A stretch of 64,000 bases of DNA from Amphibalanus amphitrite (lineage: Eukaryota; Arthropoda; Thecostraca; Balanomorpha; Balanidae): positions 620,001 to 684,000 of the forward strand of contig NW_024881618.1 in the NCBI RefSeq assembly GCF_019059575.1, read 5' to 3'. The notes under the pieces are model-generated. The model did not search any database. It saw only the letters and a program-made list of their open reading frames with translations, and was not told where the DNA came from. Positions 1 to 49,120 of the stretch are shown one piece after another (the first letter of the stretch is position 1; the number at the start of each line of letters is the position of its first letter). The position numbers and the translations under genes were made by a program.

Positions 1-2229
1 CCGATCCAGTCCATATGGTCTCGCAGCGTGTCGCCGTGCTGGTGGTTGATGACGCTCTGCAGACAGAGCGCAGCCTGCGCCACCAGGTCGCTGTGGTCGC
101 TCAGCGAGACGTGACGCAGCGCGCGCGCCGCCGCGCTCCGTTTGGCGCGCTCCAGACGGCGCACGTGGCCCGACACCAGATAGTTCTGCATGTAGCGGAA
201 GTTGCCGTCCAGCTGGGCTGTAGAACGTATGTCAGGGAGGTTGAGGTCAATGGTGGGCGAGAGTTGAGGAAATCACGGGTATGGCTTGGTGTGAATTGAA
301 CAGGTTGTTGTCAAATATTTGCGTTGCATGCGCGTTGTACCTACGAATCGGAAACGCAACTGGTAGTTGGAGTCGACTGGAACCTAGCACAATTCAGTGC
401 TAGGCAACAAGTGTCATTCACCAACAGAATGAAGACACTATGCCGACCGCGGGTTTGTCTATCGTCACTACATAGCATTATACACCGACATTCATAGAGA
501 GCGGATACTGTCCTTTCCTATCATGACCGTGTCTTTCTGTTTTAATAGCAGAGGTTACCGAAGCAATGGGTAAAAATAAGTTTGTTCAAAGAAGTTAAGA
601 TCAAATAAGTTTAAATAACTCAGATGCATAGACCGACGACCGTAGACACTGACATAATAGGTTGGGGCTCACTTTCAAAGGCGTCATGAAGCTGGTCGAT
701 CTGCTGAATTCCCAGTTTCAGGCACTTTATCTTCTCTCGTTTCTCCAGGTTCTGGTTGAAGGGGTAGTTCTTCCAGAAGTCGACCTGCTCCTGTTTGTCG
801 GTCGCCTCCATCATGACCTCTCGCAGCTCCTCCGACAGCTCTGAGGGGAAGGTGAGGGCAGAGGTGCGGTGATAGGGAGAGGCCTCCTCCGACAGCTCTA
901 GAGGGCACCGGAGTAATGTGAGAGTTGAACTTCTGACAGCAGCTCTGAGAGGCGGAGGCACAATATAAGGGACATAAGCTTCGACAGCTCTGAGGGACAG
1001 ACGTGCGGTATGGGAGACAAGCCTCCCACAACAGTTGAGGGCCAGAGGCCAGAGGCCGGTGATAGGGACATGTCTACTCCGACAGCTCTGAGGGCAGAGA
1101 CGCGGTTTTACGAACGGGCGGAGAGTCTCGCTAGCTTACCAGCCACGACACATGCACGGCTCCAGCCGGCCTCCACCTATCAACCCGTTTAGCCCTCTTG
1201 GCTCTTAGGGATCCACCCTCTCAGTTCTTTTTCTAGCACTCTAATGAATGAGCAATTTACGTTTATCGTTGAGAAGGGAAACAATCATTTTTTTCATTCA
1301 TATGCACTCCATGGGGTGTTTTCGAGCAGCGCGGTGTCCCGGTCCCTCCCCACGGACCTCTCTGCCCCGCCCCACGCGCGGCCGGCCGGCGTCTCACCGA
1401 ACTCTGCGCGCTCGTGGCGGCGCTGCTCGGCGCGCAGCTGCGCCTCCGCCTCTCCGATCTCGCCGTCTCGCGCGGCCACGTCCTCGTCACAGGCGCGCCG
1501 CTCGGAGCCCTCCTGACGGCGCAGGAACGCGATGGTAGCGTCCAGCTCCGAGCGCTGGCCGCCCACCTGAAGCACAGTGCGACACGAGATAATTAGGGGT
1601 GGGTGTGAGGCTGTGGGCGGTATTCCAAGACAAGACAAGACAAGGCTGTTAGGGCGGTGAATCAGTCACATCCAGTCACCCAGGCAGCAGTCAACAGAGC
1701 AAGATGGAGTCACAGGCTGATGTCAATTCTGTTCGAGAAGAGGTCATGGGTTGATGTGAGTTCTGTTAATTTTGAATGTCAGGTTATGGACACAGCGGGA
1801 TCGTAATTACCTAGGTACCTGGGTCTTAAGCTCGCGGTTTTCATCCTCCCATTCCTTGGCGTTCTCCATCAGACGAAGCTTCTTCTGCGTCCCGCAGTCC
1901 AGCCTGCCAGAGGAAATCACGTCATATGAGGCGTGGAGGAGTGACACTGTGGCAGACACTAAATTAGGCAACCTTAGACACCGTTGGCTGATGGCTGAAT
2001 AAGAACTATCTGTGGACGTTAAAGGATCTCGCTATCTGAAACATATGGCCTAAATCAGCTCAACTCAATCAGCAACGTTACAAAGTGTGCGTATGTGTGT
2101 GTGTGTGTGTGTGTAGGGGGGGGGGCTACAGAAGCAATATACTCACAGGTATTCGGCGATGGTGATTTTCGGATCTTTACTCGGCTCTTTGGCCTTCTTC
2201 TTCTTCCCCTTTCCTTTCTTCTTGCCCAT
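1..2229 (-). CDS. Coiled-coil protein with Lys-rich N-terminus (partial, 5 exons seen)
   Basis: Five exons join in phase on the minus strand: 2229 down to about 2150 (start Met, then a Lys/Gly-rich stretch beginning MGKKKGKGKKKK), 1903-1819, 1566-1398, 840-673 and 217 to beyond position 1. Donors and acceptors are GT-AG; the first donor reads CT/GTGAGT. The protein is charged and heptad-like (ENAKEWEDENRELKTQ, AFLRRQEGSERR) and so probably a coiled coil. Later exons contain EQVDFWKNYPFNQNLEKRE and a helical segment ending LRDHMDWI at the window edge. A Lys-rich start followed by coiled coil resembles ciliary proteins such as BBOF1 or CFAP157, but I found no diagnostic motif, so the family is a guess. 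The exon at 673-840 has a row of degenerate copies of its acceptor edge upstream (to about 1100). The C-terminus lies outside the window. Confidence 0.7.
837..1100 (-). repeat. Degenerate tandem copies of an exon acceptor edge
   Basis: The 3' splice site and first bases of the coiled-coil gene exon ending at 840 read, on the plus strand, CTCCGACAGCTCTGAGGG. Related blocks recur near 885, 985 and 1078, separated by similar filler (GCAGAG-TGCGGTGATAGGGA). The copies are diverged, so this is an old example of the exon-edge duplications seen elsewhere in the window. Confidence 0.7.
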
Positions 2230-3362
2230 TGCTGCTCTCTTGGTGCAAAATCAAGGAAATCCACAAAGGTCTACGCCAGTACGTGAAAGAAACATATGGA
2301 GGTGACAGGCTTGTGGCTCGTAGTGCCCTTCAACAGCATCATCATCATCATGATGTGTAGGCAGAGGATCCGTAGTTTCGCAACGAAAACAATTTGATGA
2401 AACCAGAGATGATCGCAATCACATTATCGACATAAACACTGCGGTGCAGGCACCAATTTGTAAGAACTTTAGGACGTCAGTGCATTAGTCGAAGTAAAAT
2501 TCGCAGGAAGTGTAACAACAGGGTCACAAAAGGAAGACTCGTTAGACTGAAAACGTGTCGACGCTTCATGTCCTCGATTTAGACCCCAAAAACGTGCTGA
2601 CTTTGGTAATGAGCCGCTATCGGAAACAGTGGATAAGAAATGGTCCGATACTTTGGACAGGATAAATAGCACAGTCTCAACAAATTTATTTACAGAATAT
2701 GTCATAGCTGAACAAGTTCATGTTCACGAAGATAATAAAGATGGCCCAATGCATCCGGATTACACCCAGTGACGTGTCTGATTCGACATAGGCGTCACGA
2801 ATTATGCAAAAAAAAAAAAAACACACACACACACAATTTCAATTTCAGAATAAATGAATCAGCAGAAATTAGAGAAGTTCGTAATCTCCAGAATATAAAT
2901 GGCCACACAGAAGTTCAAAACAAAATAATAACGAATGATAATGGCAGCGCCAAGCTTCAAACCGCTGTACCTTTCGCGTATAAAAATGCCACCATACATC
3001 ATTCGCGTTTACGATACGTTTAAAGACGTGCACCTTCAATGTGAGATGTCGCCGAGCTATGCCCTCACCTCATCCTGTGAAAACGTATGGGACAAACGTA
3101 CAAAAGAGCGCTAGACAACCCCCATTCCCACCCCCCCCCCCCCCCACACATCCAACATGTCTCTCAACACAACACAGCAGCGTCTTTCCAGCGCACGGCA
3201 AGTTCCTCGTCCACTGCACTTTGCGCCTTCCAGCGGTGAGCACCGCCCCTCGCTGACCATGTCCGGGCGGTAGGGATGCCGTCAAAGAAGTCCCACCCCG
3301 TCACTCCCACTGGCGTCCGTTCGCCGCGGACCCACCGTTGTGCACTCGCGCTCGCAGTCCTC
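2230..3362. other. Intergenic spacer between the coiled-coil gene and MED21
   Basis: No coding pattern seen. It holds a short GT run (about 2094-2115, in the adjoining intron), an A-run followed by a CA run near 2808-2835, and homopolymer C near 3130-3146. A candidate minus-strand poly(A) signal (TTTATT on the plus strand, near 2683) is far downstream of the MED21 stop. Confidence 0.5.
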
Positions 3363-4217
3363 TCACGGCTCGGGCCGATGCCCGGCCAGCAGCAGCTGCG
3401 TGTCCAGCTGGCTCTGCGCGATATCGTGCAGCGCCTCCTGGATCCGCTGCAGCAGCTGCTCGCCGCGGGACACCACCTCCCGCAGCCGCTGGCCGGCCGC
3501 CTCGTTCTCACGCTCGAGCAGCTCCAGTGCCGACAGCTGCCGGCAGAGGTGGCCCTGTTAGCGGTGGGCTCGGGGTCGAATATGTATGTATGTATGTATG
3601 TATGGATGTATGTATGCATGTATGTATGTATGTATTGACATCAAAAGCCTTCCACATATGGCGTGGCGATTACGGGGCGAATACAGGGCCAGCGAGGTGC
3701 CATACGGCAGCAGTCGCTCCCACTTCTTAATGCGAGGTGTTGAGTCCTCACAGGGTCGTCAGTGATAGTGGGATCTCCCTTACAGTTCGGCGGAAAAGTT
3801 GCAGTTTGGTGGAGGACTTCCCATTCACCCGTAGTTTGTAGAGCTCTGAGAGCAGAGTGACTTACCTGCAGTTCGGTGGAGGAGTCCTTACCTGCAGCTC
3901 GGTGGGGGTGGGGTCCATTTACCTGCAGCTCGGTGTGGGGAAGGGGGTTCATTTACCTGCAGCTCAGTGGAGGAGTCCTCGCTGGGTAGCGAGTCGATCA
4001 GCGTGTCAATGTCCTTGGCCTTGCGTCCGATGAGCGTGGCGAACAGCTGGGCGTAGTCCTCTGCGGGCTGCACGTGCTGCGGCGTGCGGCCGCCGGCGCG
4101 GTCGAAGCCGGGGAAGTGGCCGGGCGCCGCCTGCTGTTGCAGGATGCCCACACTGTTACAGAACAGCTCGGCCAGCTCGTTGACGGCGTCCTGCAGCTGC
4201 GTCAGCCGGTCGGCCAT
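3363..4217 (-). CDS. MED21: Mediator complex subunit 21 (SRB7 homologue), complete, 2 exons
   Basis: Exon 1 is 4217-3957 (87 codons) and exon 2 is 3536-3363 (57 codons plus TGA), giving 144 aa, the length of human MED21. The start [20 protein letters not shown] matches the conserved N-terminus almost residue for residue. It is followed by [28 protein letters not shown], and exon 2 contains [20 protein letters not shown]21 is a small helical subunit that pairs with MED7 in the Mediator middle module, bridging transcription factors and RNA polymerase II in the nucleus. The donor is CAG/GTAAAT and the acceptor GGCAG/CTGTCG, both phase 0. The intron next to exon 1 carries several tandem copies of the exon 1 donor edge (about 3780-3956). 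Confidence 0.96.
3575..3690 (-). mobile_element. LINE/SINE-like 3' end with (TATG)n tail
   Basis: A (TATG)n microsatellite at 3581-3635 abuts a stretch of about 43 bp beginning ATTGACATCAAAAGCCTTCC (3635-3679). The same stretch occurs at 45894-45937, there followed by different sequence. Read on the minus strand the order is conserved body then (CATA)n tail, the usual arrangement of a non-LTR retroposon 3' end. Only the tail is recognisable here. Confidence 0.6.
3780..3980 (-). repeat. Tandem copies of the MED21 exon 1 donor edge
   Basis: The true exon 1 end is, on the plus strand, TTACCTGCAGCTCAGTGG (donor rc at 3951-3956). The block TTACCTGCAGYTCGGTGG recurs near 3924, 3890 and 3862, with more diverged copies to about 3780. 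Each copy carries a potential GTAA donor plus about 15 nt of exon sequence. Confidence 0.85.
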
Positions 4218-4689
4218 GGCGGCGCAGCGCTGCCGGGCCGCGTCCCAGGCGCGGGGAGAGCAGAGACCCCAGCCGGTCGGTGTCAGCAGGGGTAGGCAGC
4301 TTCTGACAGTGAAACGGCGCTACCTACCAGTTTCTGAGAAAGGCCCCAATACTTGTCAGTGATTATCCACCTGTACAGTGCTAAGGAAATAGTCAAACAG
4401 TTACATTACAATACAAAAAAATGAAACGGGGTAACACAATCCAATTTATAAAAAAAAATGAAACCACGCCCAACGTAACAGAGAAACTTCCAATACAAGC
4501 TCAGAATCCCTCGAAATCCATTTTGTATCGGAGCTTTGGAGTGGAAGTCAGTTGAAGTCATGGCAACAACCCAAGAGTCAGAGTCGGGACTGTCCACTCC
4601 AAGCTGCCTTGACTCTAGAAAATGATAGAACAGTCACGGAACTGAATGCTCAGACTACTCCAGAACATGTATTCGAACCTGGGGTAGCA

Positions 4690-5120
4690 TTCACTGATGC
4701 ACGGCTAAAAATAAGATTTGCATAGAGCTGCTCGGCGTGAAGTACGTGGTGCTGGACAGGACCCCGGGGCTCGGCCCGCACTGCCGCAACCTTCGCCGCC
4801 GTGTCCGCCCCCACATCGCCCAGCTTCGACACATCACTGGCCGCAGCTGGGGCCTGGAGAAGCGGCAGCCCCGAGCTGTCGCCAACGGCCACGTCAGATA
4901 GGCCATCGAACACACAACGGCCGCCTGGCTGCCAGCGACGGCCAGGACTGACATGGAGGTGCTGGGGCGTGAGATGCGCGCCGCAGTTCGTCACCAACTG
5001 CATCGGATCGGTCCCCCCACCGTGGGGTCACGGCCGAGGCAGACATGGTACCAGTTGCGGCTTGCCGCACGGCGCTGGAAGCGCAGATGCTAATCAAGGT
5101 CGCAGCTCCGCCCACTGAGG
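4690..5120 (+). mobile_element. Decayed non-LTR retrotransposon fragment (RT C-terminal region)
   Basis: A plus-strand reading contains ELLGVKYVVLDRTPGLGPHC, then LRRRVRPHIAQLRHITGRSWG, matching the layout after the RT core in Jockey-like LINEs (LGV-x-LDR-x-L-x-x-x-H ... R-x-x-x-L-x-x-L-x-G-x-x-WG). A stop interrupts it near 4897. Another short stretch (MEVLGREMRAAVRHQLHRIG) follows in the same frame to about 5095. No EN or RT core is left. It is a 5'- and 3'-truncated fossil. Confidence 0.55.
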
Positions 5121-5199
5121 ACCTTCTGCACTAGCTGGCAAATGCAGACCTAGCGCGGCACCTCAATTCATAGAAATTGGCTTAACCTTGGCCCGCATT

Positions 5200-6060
5200 G
5201 GTGTTTTGCCAGCCTCGAACGTATGGGGGGGGGGGGGGGTCCGTCGTCCGTTGGACCCCTCTCGCCGTTTGGCTCCTGATCGAGCTAGAGCTTTGCGAAA
5301 AAAGCGTGTTGCCCGTGACGAAAGGAAGCCGATGATACCCAATTTTAAGGTTCTAGGTCATTGGTTGACCAGGTTAGGTCAATGACCCGGCCAAAAGTCG
5401 GGAAAATCGGGACCTGTTAGAGCATCGTAAAGTGCGGCTGCTATAGGGGTTTTCGGGGTGCTGATAACGAATATCATGTTAGTTTTGATCACAGATGATG
5501 TCTTCATGCATTTAGGCCAGGTCAGGTCAACTATCGAGCATTCGTAGTACGTCGCGTATTCGTAGTACCTACGTGCCAACCGCCTCTGACAGCTTCGTGT
5601 CACATTACGAAGGCACCAAACTTCTTCGTAAATGTTCAAATGGTTGCTAAATTCAAATTCAGCTAAAAAAAACTAGCCTAGAAACATGTACAACTCGAAA
5701 AAGTGAACCGAGGTCATCAAAGGTCAATGACCTGATCCGAGCTCCAAATGACCTTGAGGCTTGACACCAACCCTTATGCATGGGACCAACATCATAACAC
5801 ATGTTTGAACGCTTGAAACCACGAAAAGACTGCAAACGCGCAGCTAATGTGAGCCGACACGCCGAATGGCGATGCCGGCCAAACATGGTCTAAAAAAGTA
5901 CCTAGGTCACAACTCACAGGTCAAAGGTCATAAATTGGGCCAGGGTCATGAAATTTTCAGGGTAGGTGTAAAATTGATTAATGCGAGGGCACTGAAAGTT
6001 TTGTGGCAATCGGCAGCTTTTAACATGAGTCCGCCATCAGAGGTCAAGGTTCACGTTTAG
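5200..6060. repeat. AGGTCA-rich interspersed repeat, copy A
   Basis: The stretch begins with a G-run (5223-5240) followed by CTCTCGCCGTTTGGCTCCTGAT and a body with many AGGTCA/TGACCT hexamers (near 5355, 5380, 5520, 5712, 5722, 5750, 5905, 5920). The same order (CTCGCCGTTTCGCC, GAGCTAGAGC, GAAAAAAAGCTTGTG, CCCGATTTTAAGGT, TAGGTCA) recurs at 46160-46300, so it is a repeat family rather than a single regulatory region. No coding capacity is visible. Confidence 0.65.
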
Positions 6061-6082
6061 AGGATACCTATGTAGTGGCTAG

Positions 6083-6132
6083 AACACTAATGGTCACCAT
6101 TAGTGTTAGTAACACCATTAAATGGTGTTACT
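6083..6132. repeat. Two back-to-back perfect palindromes
   Basis: 6083-6107 has 11-bp arms (AACACTAATGG / CCATTAGTGTT) around TCA. 6108-6132 has 12-bp arms (AGTAACACCATT / AATGGTGTTACT) around a single A. The two hairpins are directly adjacent and share the ACCATTA core. Confidence 0.9.
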
Positions 6133-11092: not shown

Positions 11093-11096
11093 ATCT

Positions 11097-16296: not shown

Positions 16297-18926
<2,630 letters not shown>

Positions 18927-19250: not shown

Positions 19251-20020
19251 CTCAGAAACCAGGGCGGACTGACGGACAAAAACAAAATCCGGTCCGGTAA
19301 AAACTGCAGTGGTGATAAAGGCGGTAACTGTTGACGGTAGCTGTCTTGTAACTTTTCGAAATATGAGTACCAATCATATGAATGTTGAAAAAGAGTCAGG
19401 ACCGTAGCCGTAAAACGGAAATTGAGGTACTGGATCCATTGGATGGATATGTTGAATATCCGCAGACATACATACTGTCCCTAAAACTGAACTACCTAAT
19501 GCGTCCATTACACATATTAAAGCGCGTACAGCCACCTAGATTTGTCGAGCCTAAAAACTGCCAACCTGAGACTATAATAGGTATATGTATGTAGTGTATC
19601 CATCGGGCGTGGTCCGCTCAAATAAGTCGTCGCTTTCGGCAATATCTCTAACGACTGGAGCACATTGCCGGTCCACACTGGTGCCCTACATTAACGATCG
19701 CTGCCCGAACGCTGAACAAACAAGTCACCATCGTCGCTGGTCGCTGCCGTCGCGGCCCAGTGCGCTGGGTCAACAGGGCACGCGCAGGTGGGCACACACA
19801 GGTCGCCACTCGTTGACGGTGCAGGTCAAACAGAACACACGGCTGAACGGGAGGCAAACACCGGGCTTGTCGCGTCTATTGAAGGCGAGCCGACCGAGGA
19901 GAGGTCAGCCCCAGCGACGGCCCGCGGCAGCGCCATCAGTGAGGGCGAATACGGCCACCGCGGGGGTGTCCGTATAGAATAGTCACTCATCGGCCGTGGC
20001 TGTCCACTCTGTGGCGGACA

Positions 20021-21391
20021 GTGCAGCCGGGGACGGTCTCCGACGTCCCCTCACCTCTGCGCTTGCACCTGCCGCTGCCGCTGACGACGGATATGTCGTG
20101 GACGGGTCATCCGAGTTCCCCTGTAAACGCCAACACCCCAGGCACTCTGCCGGACGGAGACACCCCAGGCACTCTGCCGGACGGAGAGAAGCCAGCGGTC
20201 GAGCCGGCGCCGGCCGGCCCGCTGCCCCGGTCGGTCGGCGCTCTGCTGCGCCTGCTGGAGCTGACGGGCGCGGCCGGCCCGCCCGGCTGGCGCCGCCTCC
20301 TGTACGCCTGTCTGCTGCACGCGCTGCAGACGGCAGCCGCCTACCAGACCACCGCCTGGTCACTGCGCTACGGCCTGCAGAAGCTGGCCGCCGGAGTGCC
20401 GGCCGTGCGCGTCGTGGCCGACACCGCCTTCTTCGGGGTGGCGTTCGTACTGCGGTGGCTGACCCTGAGCGCCGTCCTGCTCCGCGGCCGGCGGCACTTC
20501 TCCGCCGAGCTGGACAGGGTGCGCGCCTGCCTGGACCAGCTCTCCGACCTGCCGGGCTGGGCCGCGCCGCGCCGCCGCACCGCCCGCATCGCCGCCGCCC
20601 TGCTGGCCGTGATGCTGGCGCTGACAGTCGGTATCGGCTGGACCACCGAGGGCTTCATCTCTCCAGAGATCTGCCGCTCGCAGCACTGGTCCAAGTGCCT
20701 CCTGGCGTGGACGCGGCGGGTCGGCTACGTCGGCCTGGTGGTCTCCTTCCAGCTGGTTCCGGTGAAGTTCCTGCTGGTCGGCCTGCTCATCTCGGACGGC
20801 CTGGAGACCGTGAACGCCGAGCTGAGGGCGATGGTGAACGGCGAGCGGCCGGCCGGCGCCTGGCAGCTGCAGCGGCTGGCGCGGCTGCGCGCCCGGCTGA
20901 CCGACTCGTTCGTCCGACTGACCGGAGATAGTGCCGCAGAGCTGGTGCTGGCCATGGCCAACGGGATGCTGCTGCAGGTCACCCTCTTCATGAGCGTGCT
21001 GGAAACGCTGCGGTCCGCCTTCACCGCGCAGGACGTGGCCGGTTTCGCTGTGTACCTGATGTCCACCGGTCTGACGCTGTCCGGTCCGTGCGAGGCGGGC
21101 CAGCGGGCGCTGCAGCTGTCGGCCGACAGCCGCCGGCTGCTGCTGCAGCTGGAGGGCCGCCGTCCCGAGCTGGCCAGTCAGGCGGCCCTGCTGCGGGAGG
21201 CGGCCGCCCAGGACCTGGACACGCTCGGCGACCTGGGCCTGTTCCGACTGCGGCGCTCCACCATCGTCAGCGCCTCCTCCACCATCCTGACCTACGTCAT
21301 CATCATGGTGCAGTTCAGCGAGGCCGGCGGCGGCGGTCGGGACGCCGCCGCCGCCGGTAGCGTCAGCGTCACCACCGCCGCGCTACCGTAA
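20021..21391 (+). CDS. Gustatory receptor-like 7TM protein, single exon
   Basis: An uninterrupted 456-aa frame. The signature is the C-terminal TYVIIMVQF (about residues 424-432), the TYxxxxxQF motif of insect and crustacean gustatory receptors, preceded by LGLFRLRRSTIVSASSTIL. Hydrophobic helices are visible around AFFGVAFVLRWLTLSAVLL, AAALLAVMLALTVGIGW, VGYVGLVVSFQLVPVKFLLV, ELVLAMANGMLLQVTLFMSV and VAGFAVYLMSTGLTLSG, giving seven with the last motif. The family forms ligand-gated cation channels with an intracellular N-terminus in chemosensory neurons; the ligand cannot be inferred. I use Met 20021; Met 20093 would drop a Pro-rich leader containing a tandem duplication (TPGTLPDG twice). 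A Gly/Ala-rich 24-aa tail follows QF. Very high GC and no introns set it apart from its neighbours. AATAAA lies at 21648. Confidence 0.85.
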   Translation: MQPGTVSDVPSPLRLHLPLPLTTDMSWTGHPSSPVNANTPGTLPDGDTPGTLPDGEKPAVEPAPAGPLPRSVGALLRLLELTGAAGPPGWRRLLYACLLHALQTAAAYQTTAWSLRYGLQKLAAGVPAVRVVADTAFFGVAFVLRWLTLSAVLLRGRRHFSAELDRVRACLDQLSDLPGWAAPRRRTARIAAALLAVMLALTVGIGWTTEGFISPEICRSQHWSKCLLAWTRRVGYVGLVVSFQLVPVKFLLVGLLISDGLETVNAELRAMVNGERPAGAWQLQRLARLRARLTDSFVRLTGDSAAELVLAMANGMLLQVTLFMSVLETLRSAFTAQDVAGFAVYLMSTGLTLSGPCEAGQRALQLSADSRRLLLQLEGRRPELASQAALLREAAAQDLDTLGDLGLFRLRRSTIVSASSTILTYVIIMVQFSEAGGGGRDAAAAGSVSVTTAALP

Positions 21392-21647: not shown

Positions 21648-21653
21648 AATAAA
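21648..21653 (+). terminator. Candidate poly(A) signal AATAAA of the gustatory receptor gene
   Basis: Canonical hexamer 257 nt after the stop codon on the same strand, in otherwise gene-free sequence. Confidence 0.5.
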
Positions 21654-21659
21654 GACAAC

Positions 21660-24568: not shown

Positions 24569-27500
24569 TTACGAGAGCGACACGTCGGCGGATCGGTCGG
24601 CCAGTCCGGGCGCGCTGGTGGCCAGCACGTGCACCTGCTGACCCCGCGAGGCGCTGTACACCTGGCCGGCGGCGAACGGCTCCAGGCGCGGCAGGCTGGA
24701 GCCCGTGACCAGCGCGCGGCCCTCGGTGCTCTCTGAGGGGGGAGGGCGAACGTGGTCAGCGCACGGCCCTCCCTCCCCACTCTGCATGGGGAGGGAGGGA
24801 GGGGTGATCGGCCCTCGACAAATTGAGGAGGAAGGGAGAGTGTGGGCGCACGGTCCTCCACACATTCTGAGGGAGGGAGAGGGGATGGGTCAGCGAGGTC
24901 CTCGAGCAGTAATCGAGCACCTCGAGTCCCATATTGCGCCTGGCGTAGGCCTCACTCATGTTGTTCGGGATGCAAGTCGACCGTGGGTGGTCTATATCAC
25001 GCCCTTTACCCCTGTTGATCGGGATGCAGGACCATGGGCAGTCCATATCACGCGCCTTACCCTTGTTGGCCGGGATGTAGCGGCTGAGTCGGACAGTGAC
25101 TGGTCCATGATGCCCCTTAGTCCCTTACCCTTGTTGGCCGGGATGTAGCGACTGAGTCGGACAGTGACTGGTCCATGATGCCCCTTAGTCCCTTACCTTA
25201 ATTGTTGGCGGGGATGTAGCGACTGGGTCGGACAGTGACTGGTCCATGCCCCTTAGTTCCTTACCTTTGTTGGCGGGGATGTAGCGACTGAGTCGGACAG
25301 TGACTGGTCCTTGCCCCTTAGTCCCTTACCTTTGTTGGCCGGGATGTAGCGACTGAGTCGGACAGTGAGTGGTCCTTGCCCCTTCCCTTACCTTTGTTGG
25401 CCGGGATGTAGCGGCTGAGTCGGACAGTGACTGGTCCTTGCCCCTTAGTCCCTTACCCTTGTTGGCGGGGATGTAACGACTGAGTCGGACAGTGACTGGT
25501 CCATGCCCATTAGTCCCCTACCTTTGTTGGCCGGGATGTAGCGGCTGAGTCGGACGGTGGGCAGCGGCAGGAATCCGCCCGTCAGAGGCATCACCTCCAG
25601 CTGCAGCACGTGACGCGTGTCCGGACCCATGTCCAGCACTCCTGCCGATACAGGGCGCACCGCAACGCGCCGGTGAGTACACAGGGCACGCCGGAAAGTC
25701 GGACACCAACTCACCAGAACATACGTCATAAAGTTATCAGCGCAAAATGCCAAGAAAGTAAAGCACTTTAGCAACCTGCAAGAAACTTTCCAGTGCTAAT
25801 GACATGGTACCTAGTCTACCTACCATTATCATCACCACTAATATATGTTTCTGCCTCTGAAGAGAAAGAGAAACACATTTCCCTCTCCGTTACCCCAGTT
25901 ACCCCTCTATATTATACACTCTGCTAGCGGCTGGCTCAGACGGTTCCCCTCTCATTACCCCCGTTACCCCACCATCCACTGACCTGAGCTCCGTCCGCAG
26001 ACGGCCCACTTGTTACCCCGTTACCCCATCCTGACTGACCTGAGCTGCGTCCGCAGATGGCCCACCTGTTACCCCGTTACCCCATCCTGACTGACCTGAG
26101 CTGCGTCCGCAGACGGCCCACATGTTACCCCGTTACCCACTGACCTGAGCTGCGTCCGCAGACGGCCCACATGTTACCCCGTTACCCACTGACCTGAGCT
26201 CCGTCCGCAGACGGCCCGCATGTTACCCCGTTACCCCGTTACCCACTGACCTGAGCTGCGTCCGCAGACGGCCCACACGTTACCCCGTTACCCCTATCAC
26301 CTACTGACCTGAGCTGCGTCCGCAGATGGCCCACATGTTCTGGTCGGCCAGCACCTCGTACATGACGGCTCGCAGCTCGGCGGTGCCGTCCTCCTGCGCC
26401 ACCGTCACGTGCAGCTGGCAGATGGAGCCGGAGCGGCAGAACTCGGCGCCCTTCAGCGGCTCCATCCGACACGTCACACTCAGCAGAGTCTGTGCCAGGG
26501 AGATAAACACGTATGTACTGTAATTTACTGCGAAGGGAAAGGTAGATAGTACGGGCATAAGTGCGAAAAATGACGCGACCACATGAAGTTAGCAGCTCAC
26601 ATAAAAACAATATAAACATCAACTCAGAACAAAACGCTATATTTAGTGAGCCAAACAATGTCAGTCACACCGTCAAATCTGATCCAGAATTCAGCGCCGC
26701 AAAGTGTCTACAATGTTTGTCTCAGTAGCCCGGCCCTCACCCGGTAGTCGGAGACGGTGAAGTCGAACTTGAAGCGCTGCCTGGTCTCGGCGTCAACGGC
26801 GCGGTACTCGACGCTGAACTGACTGCGGACCGGCGGCGTCTCCTTGGACAGCACCATCTCCCACATGTACGAGACGCTCGTCTCGCTGGACACCACCTGT
26901 CGTGGGGTCGAGGTCAGATCAACAGCACCATCTCACACATGTACGAGACGCTCGTCTCGCTGGACACCACCTGTCGTGGGGAGCAGCGTCACATCGGCTC
27001 CCACATGGACGACACGATCGTCTCGGTGAACACTGGACACCACCTGTCATTGGGAACCAGCATTGCATCATCTCCCAAAGTAACGATAGTCTCATTTCAC
27101 GCTGTTTTGGGGGGCAAGGTTGGGCTAATATCACGTCTACAATGACGTAATAGCTGATTCTCTTTGACATTGGATATTCGACACACCCCCGACAAGCAAA
27201 CGCTAAGACATGCATCGCTATTGTCCTTTTTCTCAGTCATGCTTCATAAGTGTCTCTCCTGGTGGGACATGAATCATCAACGTAACTTGTCGGGGTCATG
27301 ACTAACCATCGCCTGTAACATGCCCGTCCCACAATGTTTTTTATGATAGTCAGTCCCGTTTCGCCAATGTCTCTCCCTGACAGTGATGCTTCACCAGTGT
27401 CTCTTCCCGTCAGTCCTGCCTCACCAGTGCCCCTTCTCCAGCTGACTCATGTCTCACCACACTGCCCGTCGGTCATGTCCCACCAATGTCCCGGCCCCCC

Positions 27501-30500
27501 CCCCCCCCCCCAGACTCATGTCTCGCCTGTGTCTCACCATTGCCTCTTCCCCAACTGATGTCTCACCAATGTTTCTCGGCCCTGACTCATGTCTCACCAG
27601 TGTCTCGGCCGTCTCGTTGAGCGGCGTCAGCTCTACGGGCGCGTCGTTTACGACGGTGAGCGCCGGCCGGGTCAGCTCGAACTCGGCCGTGTTTAGTCCG
27701 TGCATCACCACCTGCACGGGCACGGATTATCAGTCAGACACACAGAGACCGTACATTGTCACCAGGGAGCCACATGCCGCGGCACGGACAGTCAAGACAG
27801 TCAGGCGGGCGGACGACAAGGAATCAGACTGGGGAAAGGGGACGGGATGGAGGCAGACAAGACACACAAATACACGTCGGACAGTCAAGGCAGCTAGGTG
27901 GGCGGACGTAAGTAGTAAGGTGGGGACAGGATTCACATAGACAGTCACACAGTCAGATGGACCATAGACCACTATATACCTGGTCTATAGTGGTCTATGG
28001 ATGGACGGACGGGAGGACGAACGGGCAGACGGTCAGACAGACGGATTGACAACAGAAGTACGGTCAGTCAAAAGAACGGCATTCGCGGGCCAGGAAAGTC
28101 AGCACTTCAAGCATTCCGTAGCAACACTCACTATAAGCTGACTTTATAGCAAAGCTGACTTTGTGTTTATTTAATAATACTCCGACATTCGACACGACAC
28201 GACATTCGACCTTCGACATTTTTGCCATTTTTCGGGCGCATTCGGTGACTGTACGCTTCAATAACGGTGTAATGACAACTTTGGCGTAATATCCGAAATT
28301 CATCACCGATGTCCAGGTAAAACACGTGTCCCACACCTGGTGATGCCGGCAGACGTTACCTGTAGGAATTTCCTAACGTTGGACGTGTGCACCTTGAAGG
28401 CGGCAGAGAACGGCAAGAGGAAGTGCAGCTCGGCCTCGACCGGCGCCGCGCTCCACGGACAGATAATGTCCACCTGAAATCAAGGATGGTCAAAAATTCA
28501 CATTTCACACAACAGCTTAGCTGACCTCAAGACACTGATAAGTTACACAATGTTTTCTAAAAGAGAAATATATACCATAATAAAACAAGCACACCATGGA
28601 AATGGCAAAAGCTATAAAACTTGCCCTAAAATGAATCTATCTCAACTTATTTTCCCAATACAGGATTATGCACGGATTCCCGTTACTCACGTTAGAGTGC
28701 TGCCGGAGCGACATAAGCAAGTCCCTTATCAATCAGCAGCCGCCCCGGTCGAGTGTGACTCACCTTGTGTACCACGCTGACGCCGTCCTTGACGTGCGCC
28801 AGCTGCGACAGCATCGAGACGGGCAGCCGGGCGCTTTGGAACGCCTCCAGCGGCGGCACGTGCAGCTGCAGCTCGTCGCTCCAGGGCGCCGCCGGGTCAC
28901 CGTCAGCGGCGCGCACCGACAGGCCACGCGAGCACTGCAGGCGAACCGCCGAGGGGCCCGGCAGCGGCTCGCTGCCGCACACGATCTGCAGCGTCATCGG
29001 CTGCACGGTGCCGGCCAGCAGGTCACCGGCTGACTTGTTCAGCGACACCTGGTGCGGAGACGACTTGACGGCGAAGCGCAGCGGCCGGGCCAGGTCGAGC
29101 GTCAGGTCGAGCGCCGGGCAGCTGAGCTGCAGGTGGCGCACCACGTACGTGCCCGGCTGCTGGACGCGCGCAGACAGCACCAGCTCGGTGGCGCCCGGCT
29201 GCAGCGTCACATCCGCCGCCTCCAGACTCTGCTGGAAGGCGGCGGCCGGCAGGTGGCTGGGCCGCGCCAGCGCCGCCGGCTGACCGCTGTCCTTGCGCCG
29301 CAGCACCTTGAACATGTTGCGGCAGACGAGCGTGGCGGCGCTCAGACTGCGGTCCTGTTTGTACTCGAGCGCCGGCTCCAGGCAGAGCTCGCCGCCGCCG
29401 GCCGCCGGCCCGTCCGCGGCTGCCGGCGAGCTGGGCCGGCGCGCCACGCCGCCGCGCCGCACCGAGCCGGCGCTCGAGGTGCTGGCCGAGCTGGTGCTGC
29501 GGCTCACCTGCTCGGCGGCCAGCGCCGGCTGCAGGTCGGCGCGCGCGCGGCTCAGCGCCACCGGCGCCGGCAGGCGGCTCTCGACCGTCACGCGCACCTC
29601 GAGCCGCGCGCCCGGGTAGGGCTCCGAGTCGGGCGCCGCCAGCCGCGTCTCGCGCACCGACACCACCTCCTCGGCGGCCAGCGTGAGCCGCGGCTCGGCG
29701 CCGGCCGCCGGCGCGCGCAGCCGCTCCGTGAACTCGAGCCGCGTCTGGTGCGGCACGTGCTCGCTGGCGGCCACCAGGGCGCAGGTCTGCGTGTACCGCT
29801 GCCGGTCGCCCATCAGCTGGTAGCAGTGCGCCAGCTGGAGCAGCAGCTGGGCGGCCAGCCGGCCCCAGCCCTCCTCCTGGTAGGTTTTCAGCGCGTCCGT
29901 CAGCAGCGAGGCGGCGTGCGCGGCCTGGCCGAGCCGCAGGTGGAACGTGGCCAGCTGACGGCCGACCAGCCGCGCCAGCCGCAGACGACCCATGTGCTTG
30001 TAGGTACCCATCGCCAGCTCGGAGAGTTCCTAGGGGCGGGGAGGACGGGGGGGGGGCAGGTCAGCGACGCCGGTACTATACCACAAGCGACCAGCAGACC
30101 ATTGTGTGTCTACTGTTCGCTTAACATCATTGACCGAAAGAGACGTTTTATTGATGCGCAATTAGAATGAATTCGTGACGAACCAATTCGTGATGAATCA
30201 GAATATTTCACATGCGCCGTGCGCACCCATCAATGGTAGCCTAACTCCAACATCATTGGATAGCTCGTCTGGCTCACCAGGTAGCACTTTTGGAAGGCGT
30301 CGTGTCCGGCCAGGGCGTCCTTGAGTTTCTCGACGGCCGGCGAGTTGTCTCCCATGCCGGCTGACAGGGTGACGGTCAGGTGCAGCTGGGAGGAAGTGGG
30401 CTCGTCGCCCGGCAGCAGCCCGCAGAGTTCTCCGAGACTGTACAGCTGCCAGCCGAACAGGGACGGTTGGAAACGCACCACAAGCGAGAATCAGGACACA

Positions 30501-33500
30501 CACTTCAGCAGCCAACACAGCTCTAAGAAAATGCCTAACTGCTGCTACTGGCAGTTTAGAGACGGGCCTTATAGCACACGAGCTTCCAGGCTATATGTGG
30601 GTAGAAATATCGGCACAATAAACCAAATCTGTGAGACAGCTCATCCAGTACGATGCTAGAGTGAGGTTAACTGTAGGCAATAAAACCAGTGACCCGAGAG
30701 TAAATACAGATCAGTCACTCACCGAGAGCACCTACCCCTGACAAACAGCTCATTTGGTGTGAGGTCCATATCCCCCAAGCCAATAACCGCGTTTCGTTCC
30801 AAGTGGCCCGTCATAAAATACTTGCTTTACAATCACGGGCAGTCAATTGTGTAACTGAAACTTGTCAGGGACCTACCACGCATGAAAATGACGTCCTAGC
30901 TGGAATGCTAAGAGCCGCAGATGCACCTACCATCAACACCAGTCTACTCGAGTCTAAGTGCACGTGCATTGTGCAAATTCTCCCCCCCCCCCCCCGGCGG
31001 GGCATCCCCACCGTCCTTTGAGTTCTCAAGGTCACCAACGAACGGACCTTGAGTCGCGCCTGGTCGTACAGACTGGCCGTGTGCACCCCTCCCCCCCCCC
31101 CGGACGGACCTTGAGTCGCGCCTGGTCGTACCGGGTGGCAGTGTGCATCCCCCCCCCCCCTGCAGCGCCCCCCCCCCCGGACGGACCTTGAGTCGTGCCT
31201 GGTTGTATAGGCTTGCCGTGTACCTCCCCCCCCCCCTGCAGCGCCCCCCCCCCCCCGCGAACGGACCTTGAGTCGCGCCTGGTCGTACAGACTGGCCGTG
31301 TGGACGCCGATGCCCTGCTGGGCAGCCGTGTCGGCTGGAATCTCGGCACACATGTCCAGCACGTTGATACAGGTGACGAACGCCCAGCAGGCCACACCGC
31401 CTGCGAGACACGAGGTGAGTGGGTGAGAGGTGGACAATGATCTGCTGACGGATGGCCAGCAGGCCACGCCGCCATCGAGACACAGGGTGCAGGGGTGAGA
31501 GGTGGATACTGAGATAGGCTGACGAATGCCCATCACGCCATGCCGCCTGCAAGACACGAGGTGAGTGGGTGAGAGGTGGGACAATGATCGACCGATGAAC
31601 GCCCAGCAGGCCACACCGCCTGCGAGCGCAAAGATCAAATAACGAACGGGGGGATGTCCCAACGAACCAGTATGGCACTATCTAAGCTGTATAAATCGAG
31701 TCCTAAATAAAAGAACTAAACATCATTTCCAGTGAGACGAAAATATAAATCAGTGTCGTCTCTCGTTCTTATGAGGTTAGCTGTTAGTTAGCAATGCTTC
31801 ATTATCAAATGACATTAGTATTTTTTCCGATGCTGGTTATGCAATTATGCATTACCTTGCTGGATCTCGAGTCCCATGAGGCCGAGCTCGTTGATGGTAT
31901 TGAAAAGGAAGGTGATGGTGCGCTGGGCGATCTCCGGGGTCCGGTCCAGCTTCTTCAGCAAAACACACTGACGCGCATACAGGTAGTTCCTGAGACAGAG
32001 AACGGATGGGGTTATCAGGCTAAAACGACGAGCTGTACACACGGCAGCCGCATTGCATGTAGATAAAACCAGTAAAACGCCTTTTGGGGCGACTAACGGA
32101 GCGAGCGAGTGTGGGCCTTGCACGTGCGAAATTGCGAGGGGGTACCTCCAACTGACTTGTGCACGGCACCCTACTAACTGGTCTCTAGCGATGTGCCAAA
32201 TTTGGGCACAATCGGCCCAGCCGTTCTCGAGATCTGGAAGCGGCACCCTGCACGTGCGCACGTGCAAAATGGGTCCTAACGGACTTGTGCACGGCACCCT
32301 ACTAACCGGTCCCTAACCGTGTACCAAATTTGAGCGCAATCGGTCCAGCCGTTCTCGAGATCTGGAAACGACCCCTGCACGTGCGCACGTGCAGCAGCAC
32401 CCCAACTCTGGCACATGTATATGCAGTGCCTAGTGGGTGCCTACCTACATGCCAACTTTCAGCGCAATCGGCCAAGTAGTTACCGAGATATTGCAACAAT
32501 TACAAAAGTGACACCTCTTCGTTTTGCACGTGGCACGTGCATAAGGGGTCACCCACATGCATCGGGAATAGTCCAATACTTGGTAGAAGGAATGAAGCTA
32601 CCCTACAAAAATTACCGCGTGTAAATCGGTCAAGTGGTTGCTGAGATATAAGCCTCGCAAAAGCGTGACCACGGCCGGCCGGCCGGCCGGCCGGCCGCTC
32701 ATACTCAGAAATTTCCGTTAATCTAAGGAAAGACTACGCTCGCTTCGCTCGCTCCGTAAACAGCAAATCAATTACCTCCAGTGATGTTCCAAAATATAAA
32801 GTCAAAACACTCCCGAGTCCCGAGATCAATCAGCTGTTCACCATTGCTGTCCCGCATTTCCAACCTTACACCCACGCACCATTATACTGATCAGCCTCCC
32901 TTACGAGTAATCCTAAATAATCCTAAACATAAATCATAAATCCTACATCAACATAAATCCTAAATAATCCGCCGCCGCCGTGTACGATGTAGTCACTTAC
33001 GAACACATTCAGCTAGACTGCGCGTCGTACCTGAAGGCGAGCAGGGACATCTCTCGATTGCAGAGGGCGTTCCGCATCTCCTCCGAGCAGCTGGCAGGAA
33101 CAGCCAATCCCTGCCAGCCCTGGACCGGCTGCGAGAACGTCTCCAGCCAGCGCGGCGTGTCTGTTATACACAGAGGGGAGACATTGGTCACTGTGGGTAC
33201 CACTACGGCCAGTCCCTGCCAGCCCTGGACCGGCTGGGAGAACGTCTCCAGCCAGCGCGGTGTGTCTGTTATACACAGAGGGGAGACATTGGTCACTGTG
33301 GGTACCACTACGGCCAGTCCCTGCCAGCCCTGGACCGGCTGGGAGAACGTCTCCAGCCAGCGCGGAGTGTCTGTTATACACAGAGGGGAGACATTGGTCA
33401 CTGTGGGTACCACTACGGCCAGTCCCTGCCAGCCCTGGACAGGCTGGGAGAACGTCTCCAGCCAGCGCGGAGTGTCTGTTATACACAGAGGGGAGACATT

Positions 33501-36500
33501 GGTCACTGTGGGTACCACAGCAGCCAGTCCCTGCCAGCCCTGGACAGGCTGGGAGAACGTCTCCAGCCAGCGCGGCGTGTCTGTTATACACAGAGAGGGA
33601 GATATTGGTCAGAGGGTAACACTACGGCCAGTCCCTGCCAGCCCTGGACCGGCTGGGAGAACGTCTCCAGCCAGCGCGGAGTGTCTGTTATAAATACACA
33701 GAGGGGGAGACACACAGGATCTTGAGCAATGCAGCTGTCGTTTAGGGAAGGCGGTTCGAGAAGAATGTATACCTCGGAAATAATATTCATATTCGATTCA
33801 TGAATTTACAACTTGTGGATGCATTGGTTGGCCAATAATCAAGGACCAAATAGTGGCAGTGCCCAAATTAAAGTTCCTCCTTATCCTCGCCACAAACAAA
33901 ACCAAATTACAATAAGCTAACTCGAATCATATTACCTACTGCAAAACGTGAACAGCATCACGGATGCCGGGTGTTCTGGCAAACCAGTGAGTGTTCAACT
34001 GACCTCCAGCGCACGAGTTGAGTATGAACTGCGTAAAGAGGGCATCCAGCTCATCATACTGCACGAGCGCTTCGTCACAGAGGCCCAGCTGTCCGAACAC
34101 AAACGCCAGCTCCTCCTGCAGCGGAAAGTACCGGCAGAAACTCCAGTCGCTCGAAGTGCGCTTCTCGCCTGCGGAGAGGGAAACAAGAGGTGAGGAAAAA
34201 CGACGATTGAGGGCAAGTTTGTAGGTGCTCATATCAGTGAATCGTATAAGGACTATCCAAGACAGTCAGAAATCGAAACGACTTTAAAGGCAAACGATTT
34301 ACTGTAAGTTTCAAATTTTTGCACGAGTCAATAATTGTATAACTGATAAGCTGACTGACTGATGAAATCTGAACATCTGGCAGTTATAGAGCAGCCACGG
34401 TCCCCCGCCACCACCGCTCGCCGGCCACTCACGCTGGCTGCGCATGGAATCCTCAAACCGCACCAACACCCGGTTAAAGCCGATCAGCAGGAAGTGCCGC
34501 AGCTTGGTCAGCAGGCTGTGCAGGGAGCCGGCCGAGCGGGAGTCCGATTTGGAGGGGTCCAGCAGCGTGATACACCTGCAGAACAACGACCTCAGAGAGG
34601 GAACACGTGAGACACCGGGGAACTAACCGTCCTAGTTACATGAGGTTAGCCCGTAGGGGAGCGGAGGGGGCCGTGAGAGAAATAGGTAGAGAGAACGTTA
34701 AAATTGGTCCTTATTCACTGGTTTCTCGATTATATCTCGGCATCACGGTCAACCCGCTCATCAGTCAAGTCACTTTCGACCATGATACAGATTCACGAAC
34801 GTTTACTGATTCCGCGGCTGCACGCCACTGACCGGTCTCCGTGTTTGCTGTTGATGTCGGCCTTGACCTTGTCGAGGACCGAGGAGCGCGGCAGCAGCTT
34901 GTTGGTCTTGCTGCGCGCCTCTGCCGACTCGACCACCACCACCAGCCAGTCGACCACATTGTGCTGCCGCAGCTGGGCCAGCCACGACTGTAGCGACTCG
35001 CGCGTGCTGGACTTGTACGTCTCAATGTCCTGACGAGGGCGGGGAGACAGTTGACGTATTGTTGCAAATATCCGCCGCGAAAGGTGCTGCGGGATTTTCT
35101 CTCGCGACGGACGCATAATTTATTAATTGTAAATCGACGCGACGGAAAAAGGGGGATTTTTGGGGAAGCGAAAAAGAAAGGGAACCAGCTACGTACTAGT
35201 TTATGTGTGGTTATCTTGCTGCTATGAGTCTTCGATGTGAAAGCAATAAATGCTAACCTGTTTTTTTGTAACAGTATTATGTACGATGAGCGAGCATCGG
35301 GTACAAAAGTTAAAAATTGGCCACTGAGCATGATATGAAATACAAAAGGAAACGATTAATGAACTATAAATTAATGAATAAAAAGCAGAATGGAAGAATG
35401 CAAAAATCAAGTAACAACAAGTGAGGTAAGATGCAACAAAAAGTGCATTTGTTAGCCGCAAAATATTCAGAGGAAAACTAGCTGACTCGAGCGTGGGAGA
35501 GTGTCACGGAAACGAAAAGCGGCACATTTTCTTGTCTGCGATCGACGTCCCAGCACAATGACAACCCGGATGACGTTTATCATCGGTTCCCAAATGTTGA
35601 CTGCCACAGTCCATCAGCCATAACTCACCGTGCGATGGTCCCTTTTGGGGGGCAGTCAGAACTGCTTATCAGACAGTCAGACCCCGTTCACCGGACATCC
35701 GGTCTCAGCTCACCGGAAGTTCATTCCATACTCAACGGACATTCAGTCCCCTCTCACCGCACAGTTTCTCCCCTCTCACCGTACAGTTGGCCTCCTCTAA
35801 TCGACTATCGAACGACCCGTCTTATCTCTCACAGAACATTCAGTTATCAGTCCCCTCTCCCAGGACAGCCGATACTCGTTAGCAGGAAATTTACGAGTCA
35901 CCGCCGCTCACCGTAAAATCGACCCCTGCTCACAGATCAGTGTCCGCTCTCACCAAACATTCAGTCCCCGCTTACCGGACAGTCGGTCCAGAAGGTGTGC
36001 AGGCACGGCCGCCGCACCAGCGTGCTCATGTCGTCCACCAGCGTGGCCTCCGAGAACGGCTCGAAGCTGGCCTCCAGGGTGACGTGGCGCGGCGCGCGGC
36101 CGTAGCTGCGGCGCCACTCGACCGACTCCTGTGGCAGGCCATGCACCAGGCCGTTCTGCAACTGCTGGAACACCGCCGGCTCCCCGGCGTCTGCGGGGGA
36201 CAGGGGAGGCGTCAGGGGCCGTTCTGCAGCTGCTGGAACACTGCCGGCTCCCCGGCGTCTGTGGGGGACAGGGGAGGCGTCAGGGACACTGCTGTACTGC
36301 AGCAGCTGGAACACCGCCGGCTCCCCGGCGTCTGTGGGGGACAGGGGAGGCGTCAGGGGCCGTTCTGCAACTGCTGGAACACTCTCAGCTTGCCGGCGTC
36401 TGCGGCAGACAGGAGGGAGTCAGGAAACGAGGATGTGCTGCACCTCTGGGGCATTCAGTTATTTTAAAACAATTCCTGGCTGAGTGCACACAAAGACCAT

Positions 36501-36670: not shown

Positions 36671-38305
36671 TTCAGTTGGGGATAGACAATAGGGAACTTT
36701 CCTGTCTATTTTTATTGCATCTACAACTCCTCACCAGGACCAGACCAACAAACATCAGAGTAAAGAATCTGAAATAAAAATACACATGAGCTAGTCAGAT
36801 ATAGGTATGTGATGACTGATGAGCTAAATTTCGGAATTTTTCATGGGAAGTGAAAGCCTTGCCAACGTTCAGACTATCGACCGTTTCAAAAGGGAAACGG
36901 CGCGGGTAAATTGCTATATAGATAACCAATTAACAGCGAAAAATGACTGATCTGAAAATTAACATAAACCACACAAACTGAGATAATATCAACACAAGCC
37001 GTATCCCTTGCCATATCCTAACACCGTTACTACACGTCATTCCCCGTTGTTTATGCGCACATCGCCATGCAAGATTACTTCAACTTGCCATGGGCAGGAA
37101 ATATGGAAGCAAATTATATGGTAGCTCTTTTTCAATCAAAAACTGCGCAGTTGTAACGTTTAATTTTGTTCTAAATCTCATTTTTTCGGGTCACAAACCT
37201 TTTTAAGCACCTATTAACCAATGGTCAGCGAAGTTTGCGTTTTCACAGCTATTCGCAAAAATTAAAAACGGCTCTCCATGCAAACCGCTGTTTACGGTGA
37301 CTTGCATTGCTAGGGAGTCAACGTGGTTAGACACGACGCAGTGACCGCCCAAAACCAGAGTGGAAAGAGTTGCGCAGTGAATGATGTGACAGAGCCTTGG
37401 GTATGGAATTTTGATATAATCCCACTTGTTGGTATCTGTGTGAGTTTTCTAAAGAGCTGCAACTGCTGGCTTAATATGAAGTAACAACTTAATTGGAGCA
37501 GTACTAGGCTACACACCATAACAAACAATTAGTGATAAGCATCGCAATCAAGGACTTACCTACTTGCAGTTACAGTTATGACTGGATGGACTGGAATAAC
37601 TAAAGGCTGCATAGTAACATTACGAATGGCACGATGGACTGTGTTATTATTGATATCCGATGTTCATTTTTCAAGTTTCTTATAGTAAATGCTACAGTAG
37701 AAAATAAGGATAACAATAACAAAAACCTCACTCACCTGGTCAACTCACCAGGTAGGTTTCCTGCTTCACCTATATGAATTGGACAGGTAGATTGATGGGA
37801 GTGAAAGGGAAACCCATTTTGGATAGTGACGCTCCGGCTTAATAAATAAATAGATGTAGCTGACCTGACCCCAGGTCACCAAAACTTTAAGTTCCCCCTA
37901 TCTCTATTCAAAGTCTGCTATGCTGCACAACCATGTAACATGTTTCCAAACTGCTGTTTTCAGTAGCTGTTTGAATAACATGCAAAATTAGCCTTGCAAG
38001 TCTAGAAAGGTTTGTGATGTCATGAGGTTACACGTTTTGTCTCAGAATATGTCAAAGTTCTAGGGCAAAAAACCTGAGTCCCCCAGGCTCACACATACTA
38101 ATGCATACAGTATACACTCTGCAGTCTACCACACTTCTAGTTGGGCAGATATTAGGTAAGGTCTTTCAGTTTCAGTGTTTATGCAACATTTCCACTGTCA
38201 TCTGGACACTGACCAAGATGAAGTGAAAGGCCAATAAGCATCCAAATGTTGACTCATTTTTTGTTGCAGGGAGATTTGCCTGTCAGCAACTGATTTGCTT
38301 CCAGA
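36671..38305. promoter_or_regulatory. Divergent interval between TRAPPC10 and MSTO1
   Basis: About 1.6 kb between two start codons pointing away from each other; it must contain the promoters or 5' UTRs of both. AT-rich, not a GC island, and no TATA box or initiator can be assigned with confidence. Confidence 0.4.
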
Positions 38306-48589
<10,284 letters not shown>

Positions 48590-49120
48590 TAGGAGAGGGT
48601 TCGCTGTGACCGGTCAGTGACCCAGCTGTGACCGGTCAGCGACCTGGCCGCCTGCTACCGGCCCGACACCGACGCGCTGTGATAGGAGAGGGACGGTTAG
48701 TGAGGTGCTGTGACCAGCCATGGAGGCGTTGTGACCGGTCAGTAACCGCCTGTGACCAGTTGGTGGTCAGTGACCCGGTGTGACCGGCCATTGAAGTACT
48801 GTGACCGGTCAGTGACCGCTGTGACCGGTCAATGACCCGCTGTGATCGGTCTGTTAGTTACCCGCAGTGAACGGTCAGTAGCCCGCTGTAATCGGTCGGT
48901 CACTGACCCGATGTGACCGGCCAGTGACGCTTTGTGATCGGTCAGTAACCCACTGTGATGGGTCGGTGATCAGTGACCCGCTGTGACCGGTCAATGCTGC
49001 TCCGCGGCACGCTCTGGCCGGTCAGTGCCCCGCTGGGACCGTTCCTCCACCGACCGGCAGTGGGAGCGGCCCGGCCCGACACCGGGATATCGCGGCTGTG
49101 ACCGGTAAAGGGCTGGGGAG
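48590..49120 (+). repeat. Duplicated MSTO1 coding tail and CTGTGACCGGTCAGTGACC minisatellite
   Basis: Bases 48629-48681 repeat the last coding segment (AGCGACCTGGCCGCCTGCTA... to a stop) with few changes, about 92 bp downstream of the original. Around it runs an irregular array of TGTGACCGGTCAGTGACC units to about 49090. This is an exon-edge duplication at a gene end rather than at a splice site. Confidence 0.88.

What the first reader, a model, noticed from the sequence alone, without database searches (positions are those of the whole stretch)
837..48690. Exon edges are repeatedly copied into neighbouring introns across at least five genes
Eleven or more junctions show tandem copies of the splice site plus roughly 15-60 nt of exon: the coiled-coil gene (840), MED21 donor (3957), NDUFS7 acceptor (17860), TRAPPC10 acceptors (26896, 31400, 33160, 36190) and donors (25522, 26309, 27598, 31267), MSTO1 acceptor (40029), and the MSTO1 coding tail (48589). 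Both strands and both splice-site types are affected, and copy number ranges from 1 to 7. Ordinary intronic minisatellites would not start so consistently on exon boundaries. The pattern suggests a locus-independent process that seeds duplications at exon edges, for example repair or slippage tied to splice-site composition, R-loops or nucleosome edges.
Basis: partly seen in the sequence, partly recalled or inferred. Interest (0 to 1): 0.92.

Follow-up and report, generated by a model that had tools for sequence, protein, structure and literature searches.

The report
Exon-edge tandem repeats in arthropod introns
In this arthropod genome, short stretches that include the end of an exon and its splice site have been copied in tandem into the neighbouring intron, in numbers that differ between what look like the animal's two chromosome copies; the same kind of repeat was described earlier in lancelets under the name 'mirages'.

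Summary
All 13 named sites carry at least one copy of the exon edge. A TRAPPC10 gene model puts its eight named edges exactly on splice sites. A second contig, treated as the other haplotype, differs in copy number at 13 of 15 edges with copies; 7 of 15 have copies on one haplotype only, at the threshold used. One donor outside the window has 79 decoy copies, and a second contig carries a similar array. In anatomy these match the lancelet 'mirages', but the host is an arthropod.

Among 44 intronic TRF arrays in 23 gene stretches, 15 span an exon edge, against 5.5 expected under uniform seeding (p=4e-5) and 8.5 with GC matched (p=0.004). Outside the window it is 6 of 29 against 2.8, or 4.2 GC-matched (p=0.04 and 0.2). 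Best reading: small microhomology-linked duplications hit GC-rich gene parts generally. Those crossing an exon edge survive because the extra copy is non-coding, and arrays then expand and contract. A dedicated exon-edge seeding process is neither needed nor excluded.

The parts
824..1100 (-). coiled-coil gene: acceptor (exon start 840) with decoy copies near 897, 989, 1087
   Evidence: scores 22, 20, 22 of 30
3888..3975 (-). MED21 donor (3957) array, 2 decoys here, 12 in hap2
   Evidence: Pfam Med21
17849..17958 (-). NDUFS7 acceptor (17860), one decoy at 17943
   Evidence: for the gene
25055..25559 (-). TRAPPC10 donor 25522 array, 65-bp units
25959..26339 (-). TRAPPC10 donor 26309 array, 56-bp units
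26844..27058 (-). TRAPPC10 acceptor 26896, copy 74 bp away
27360..27610 (-). TRAPPC10 donor 27598, about 30-bp degenerate units
31042..31301 (-). TRAPPC10 donor 31267 array; no copies found at the hap2 edge
31374..31626 (-). TRAPPC10 acceptor 31400 array, 72-bp units; no copies found at the hap2 edge
33103..33692 (-). TRAPPC10 acceptor 33160 array, 5.6 x 105 bp; the exon's frame is open through four decoys and the functional copy
35731..35984 (-). TRAPPC10 donor 35976, 22-bp degenerate donor copies (not in the finding)
36149..36424 (-). TRAPPC10 acceptor 36190 array, 68-bp units
39878..40058 (+). MSTO1 acceptor 40029 array, 68-bp units
48540..48690 (+). MSTO1 coding tail and stop, second copy at 48633-48682
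25522..36190 (-). TRAPPC10 gene model, 14 exons joined without a stop, plus a 15th exon at 24572-24732
   Evidence: Pfam (TRAPPC10_1st, E=2.4e-113)

Best explanation
These are mirage-type minisatellites. A small tandem duplication, roughly 20 to 150 bp, forms between short identical sequences in an exon and the adjoining intron. If it crosses one exon edge, the extra copy lies in the intron (or 3'UTR), so the coding sequence is unharmed as long as the exon-proximal splice site is used. The array then grows and shrinks by slippage or unequal exchange and decays in sequence. Duplications inside exons are removed by selection; those inside introns also occur and are more numerous in total (29 of 44 arrays). 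Edges receive more than uniform seeding predicts largely because exon ends are GC-rich. Shown: anatomy, copy-number differences between the two contigs, mostly intact decoy splice sites, edge excess and its GC dependence. Suggested by four hand-read cases: microhomology at birth. Inferred: purging in exons, slippage or unequal exchange, use of the proximal site.
For: A second, separately assembled contig treated as the other haplotype shows different copy numbers, with copies on one side only at 7 of 15 edges. Breakpoint microhomologies of 8, 7, 6 and 4 bp in the 4 events read, against a random mean of 1.44, P(>=4)=0.048 and P(>=6)=0.005 (breakpoints placed by hand). Splice dinucleotide intact in 76 of 81 decoys with the large GH47 array left out, and in 79 of 79 in that array. 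Edge probes have GC 0.58, intron probes 0.48, and matching on context GC lifts the expected edge hits from 4.4 to 9.2. No TRF array lies wholly inside a modelled exon in the 21 stretches. A stop-codon edge behaves like a splice edge.
Against: A residual excess remains after GC matching: 15 against 8.5 arrays, p=0.004, and probe ratio 2.06, gene-bootstrap 1.07-3.51. The microhomology set is only four events and hand-placed. Purging inside exons was not tested against a mutation rate. No RNA data.
Confidence: 0.66

Rival explanations
1. A dedicated mutational process (for instance linked to R-loops, nucleosome edges or splicing) seeds duplications at exon edges themselves.
For: 15 of 44 arrays span an edge against 5.5 uniform and 8.5 GC-matched. 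Strong local copies at 19 of 235 edges against 9.2 with context GC matched. Several edges of one gene carry copies on only one or the other haplotype.
Against: Outside the window 6 of 29 against 4.2 GC-matched, p=0.2. The exon half of a unit is under constraint, so edge copies should stay recognisable longer (inference). The MSTO1 stop-codon copy needs no splice site.
Confidence: 0.2
2. Decoy splice sites are kept by selection because they do something, such as buffering or tuning splice choice.
For: AG or GT is intact in 76 of 81 decoys, with fewer mismatches there (0.014 and 0.043 per base) than in the exon half (0.084 and 0.117).
Against: The reference site is itself fully constrained, so a low mismatch there is expected. 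Seven of 15 edges lack copies on one haplotype at the threshold used.
Confidence: 0.06
3. Assembly artefact: repeated bases created by misassembly.
For: Raw reads were not available, and tandem arrays are prone to miscounting.
Against: The second contig carries copies at 8 of the same 15 edges, at 6 of them in a different number. The 82-bp GH47 array also lies on contig C468. Copies differ from each other by substitutions.
Confidence: 0.03
4. Nothing but chance placement of ordinary intronic minisatellites, without any edge excess.
For: Naive point test: edges 29 of 233, intron points 245 of 1076. Outside-window GC-matched excess is not significant.
Against: The array-level test over all 23 stretches gives p=4e-5 uniform and 0.004 GC-matched.
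Confidence: 0.05

Closest known systems
Amphioxus 'mirage' minisatellites (Adh3, globins BflGb6 and BflGb9, troponin C, PGBD5)
   Same: Tandem units span an exon-intron boundary, donor or acceptor; many repeats carry AG/GT; copy number differs between haplotypes (6 and 3 in BflGb6). Passages of PMC3087553 and PMC3902484 seen.
   Different: Host here is an arthropod; units about 22-150 bp against 150-160 bp (globins) and 10-72 bp (Adh3); one array has 79 decoys; a stop-codon edge is also copied. In amphioxus RT-PCR suggested undisturbed splicing; not tested here.
Human internal tandem repeats at exon-intron boundaries in segmentally duplicated genes (De Grassi and Ciccarelli 2009, PMC2812944)
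   Same: Minisatellites (average unit 30 bp), some at exon-intron boundaries, variable between copies; passages seen.
   Different: Recent human paralogs with altered transcripts; here arthropod genes compared between presumed haplotypes.
Intron gain by tandem duplication around AG/GT proto-splice sites (Rogers; cited in PMC3087553)
   Same: Duplication carrying splice signals.
   Different: Here existing introns carry extra copies of their own edge; no new intron was shown.

Membership tests
Mirage minisatellites (amphioxus) | tandem unit spans an exon-intron boundary | tested here: met
   12 of 12 named splice edges have at least one decoy copy of the boundary
Mirage minisatellites (amphioxus) | both 5' and 3' boundaries affected | tested here: met
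   strong copy at 9 of 117 donors and 10 of 118 acceptors
Mirage minisatellites (amphioxus) | many but not all repeats keep AG/GT | tested here: met
   76 of 81 decoys, large GH47 array left out
Mirage minisatellites (amphioxus) | length differs between haplotypes | tested here: met
   13 of 15 edges differ between the two contigs; that the second contig is a haplotype is inferred
Mirage minisatellites (amphioxus) | regular splicing not disturbed | not testable with these tools
   no RNA data
Mirage minisatellites (amphioxus) | somatic instability (seen at Adh3) | not testable with these tools
   no reads

The most novel reading that the evidence does not exclude
Exon edges as such are hot spots of tandem duplication in this arthropod lineage, about twofold above GC-matched intron sequence. 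The process is coupled to the exon boundary, keeps producing polymorphic tandem splice sites, and may feed new introns and alternative exon ends.
Probability: 0.2. Interest if true: 0.85.

Novelty: new member of a known kind. Interest (0 to 1): 0.52.

Why it matters
Arrays of near-identical splice sites, up to 79 decoys in a row, are a natural test of how the spliceosome picks one site. Haplotypes with and without copies give paired alleles. Finding mirages in an arthropod suggests the phenomenon is not a lancelet peculiarity and makes the idea of intron change through duplicated edges testable in another lineage.

Tried and rejected
Naive coverage and point tests showed no edge excess. They count every copy of a long array, so I collapsed arrays to one unit. 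A first collapsed test looked in only one random direction from each intron point and so overstated the edge excess. It was replaced by tests that look both ways: (24 of 30 or better: 19 of 235 edges, 8.1%, against 2.7% of intron points, and 4.5% at GC 50-75%, p=0.011; outside the window 9 of 182 against 3.4% at that GC, p=0.18), which also drops edge arrays from the controls. The array test was run three times as the sample grew (14 of 32, 14 of 43, 15 of 44 spanning an edge); the last is used. It leaves out periods under 20 bp, arrays wholly inside exons (none), and the L025 acceptor array, because that exon is the outermost in its stretch and has no modelled intron. L036 (presumed allele of L024) and L023 are not in it. 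I did not check whether some of the twelve myosin stretches are alleles of each other.

Weak points of the models. The automatic coiled-coil model put the acceptor at 932, the true one is 840; that gene therefore counts as having no edge array and is not among the 15 edges compared between haplotypes. The automatic kinesin model L037 took in one decoy. The automatic TRAPPC10 model took in two units of the 33160 array, misplaced one donor (28378 instead of 28360), and was set by hand. MSTO1 exons and one L025 exon end were also set by hand. Low mismatch at splice dinucleotides was considered as a sign of function and rejected as not separable from constraint on the reference site. A PDB search with the TRAPPC10 model found nothing; Pfam confirmed the gene. 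Species: a barnacle is suspected from recall only; the papers looked at did not settle it.

Papers: PMC3087553, PMC3902484, PMC2812944, PMC8917513, PMC11331182 and PMC8270832 were seen as passages (PMC2812944 also as outline). Others were seen only in search listings. The searches in which I saw no arthropod mirage report were made, over open-licence papers only.

Full report
Setting. The window is G000:C121:620001-684000 of an 807.55-Mb assembly in 2644 contigs. The organism is an arthropod. A scan for the cuticle domain Chitin_bind_4 gave 150 matches, 150 of 705 candidates having been scored. A muscle myosin exon matches best to chains that I recall as tarantula, water bug and fruit fly, and NDUFS7 matches the chains LD31474p, which I recall as fruit fly, above mammals. 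The species was not determined. Many kinase loci appear twice on different contigs. A largely collinear second copy of most of the window lies on C172, with some rearranged and missing parts; among pieces over 300 bp, identity runs from about 71 to 98%, mostly above 82%. I treat it as the other haplotype (hap2); a segmental duplication is not formally excluded.

Gene models. TRAPPC10 on the minus strand was rebuilt as 14 exons that join without a stop, with a 15th exon downstream. Pfam confirms TRAPPC10 (2.4e-113), Misato (4.5e-35), Med21 (1e-27), and GH47, ankyrin and mitochondrial carrier genes nearby; the coiled-coil gene has no Pfam match. All eight TRAPPC10 coordinates in the finding are exact exon ends in this model.

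Observation. All 13 named sites are confirmed. Units are about 22 to 150 bp, the exon part up to about 60 nt. The 105-bp unit at 33160 stays open in the exon's frame through four decoys and the functional copy, so an upstream acceptor could add repeats in frame; the 56-, 65- and 68-bp units would shift the frame. The MSTO1 copy is of the stop codon region, in both haplotypes. The largest case lies 27 kb outside the window, in the GH47 gene: 79 decoys of an exon end plus donor, all with GT, in an array of 6.6 kb. A similar array lies on C468.

Haplotypes. At 22 of 30 bases or better, decoys in hap1/hap2 are: 36190 acc 3/3, 35976 don 3/2, 34575 acc 0/1, 33160 acc 5/4, 31400 acc 3/0, 31267 don 3/0, 30445 acc 0/2, 27598 don 3/0, 26896 acc 1/2, 26309 don 6/3, 25522 don 5/2, 40029 acc 2/2, 42510 acc 0/2, 3957 don 2/12, 17860 acc 1/0. 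Thirteen of 15 differ and 7 of 15 are one-sided. By eye, degenerate copies below threshold remain at 27598 in hap2, so one-sided does not always mean newly born; a lost array is possible too. In a myosin gene outside the window (L024), an acceptor array with four decoys has one decoy on the matching contig, L036.

Is there an exon-edge excess? The sample is 23 gene stretches with 249 edges: nine genes on C121, twelve myosin stretches and two kinesin stretches. The last 14 were chosen from family-search rows before any repeat in them was looked at. TRF found 44 arrays of period 20 or more touching introns; 15 span an exon edge by at least 5 nt. Uniform seeding of one unit on collapsed introns predicts 5.49 (p=3.8e-5); seeding at GC-matched places predicts 8.48 (p=0.004). 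For the window alone it is 9 of 15 against 2.72 and 4.27; outside, 6 of 29 against 2.77 (p=0.04) and 4.22 (p=0.2); without TRAPPC10, 8 of 35 against 3.39 (p=0.011) and 5.13 (p=0.094). A probe test without TRF-defined edges, on 21 of the 23 stretches, gives 19 of 235 edges with a strong local copy against 4.4 raw, 7.7 probe-GC and 9.2 context-GC matched (ratio 2.06, gene-bootstrap 1.07-3.51); outside the window 9 of 182 against 5.3 (ratio 1.69, 0.65-3.27). At the looser threshold of 22 the ratios are 1.52 (0.85-2.23) and 1.18 (0.52-1.99). The window was reported because it is rich in such arrays, so the outside figures are the fairer ones. The exon half of a unit is constrained, which should let edge copies stay recognisable longer (inference). 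I conclude that edges are hit more often than uniform seeding predicts, that GC explains much of this, and that a specific edge process is not established.

Birth and fate. In four events where the flank could be read, the exon breakpoint and the intron breakpoint share 8 (GGCTGCTG), 7, 6 and 4 bp; random exon-intron pairs average 1.44, reach 4 in 4.8% and 6 in 0.5%. The breakpoints were placed by hand, so this is a lead. The 8-bp match is also present on the haplotype without the array. Decoys keep the splice dinucleotide in 76 of 81 cases; this gives no sign of selection to disable them, and does not show function.

Known or new. [quoted passage not shown]). Human internal tandem repeats at exon-intron boundaries are a second precedent. 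The four sequence-level features of mirages that could be tested are met; splicing and somatic behaviour could not be tested. In my searches I saw no report of mirages in arthropods, in a library that lacks most subscription papers. I therefore file it as a new member of a known kind, in a new lineage and with an unusually large array.

Noticed in passing
window 43221-47954: A 4.7-kb segment absent from hap2 (hap2 alignments overlap by 9 bases at 63824-63832), carrying tandem arrays of TACGTACTTTT type that read in opposite orientation near its two ends: looks like a polymorphic mobile element with terminal inverted tandem arrays and a possible 9-bp target duplication.
   Followed up: partly
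window coordinates -43821 to -35182 (C121:576179-584818): 8.6-kb array of 144-bp units in an intron of the GH47 gene, not spanning a modelled exon edge.
   Followed up: no
window 20133-20195: Tandem duplication of 27 bp (a multiple of three) inside an open 7tm_7 chemosensory receptor ORF (19943-21388).
   Followed up: no
window 56969-60692 (minus): Two adjacent ORFs with reverse transcriptase and endonuclease domains, a LINE-type element.
   Followed up: no
hap2 38755-43193 (between the TRAPPC10 exons at window 26309-26489 and 25522-25641): About 4.4 kb present only in hap2's intron, with its own small tandem arrays; probably an insertion.
   Followed up: no
L031 3672-4133: Pyrimidine-rich array that stops right at a myosin acceptor without including exon sequence: an array of the tract in front of the splice site only.
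   Followed up: no
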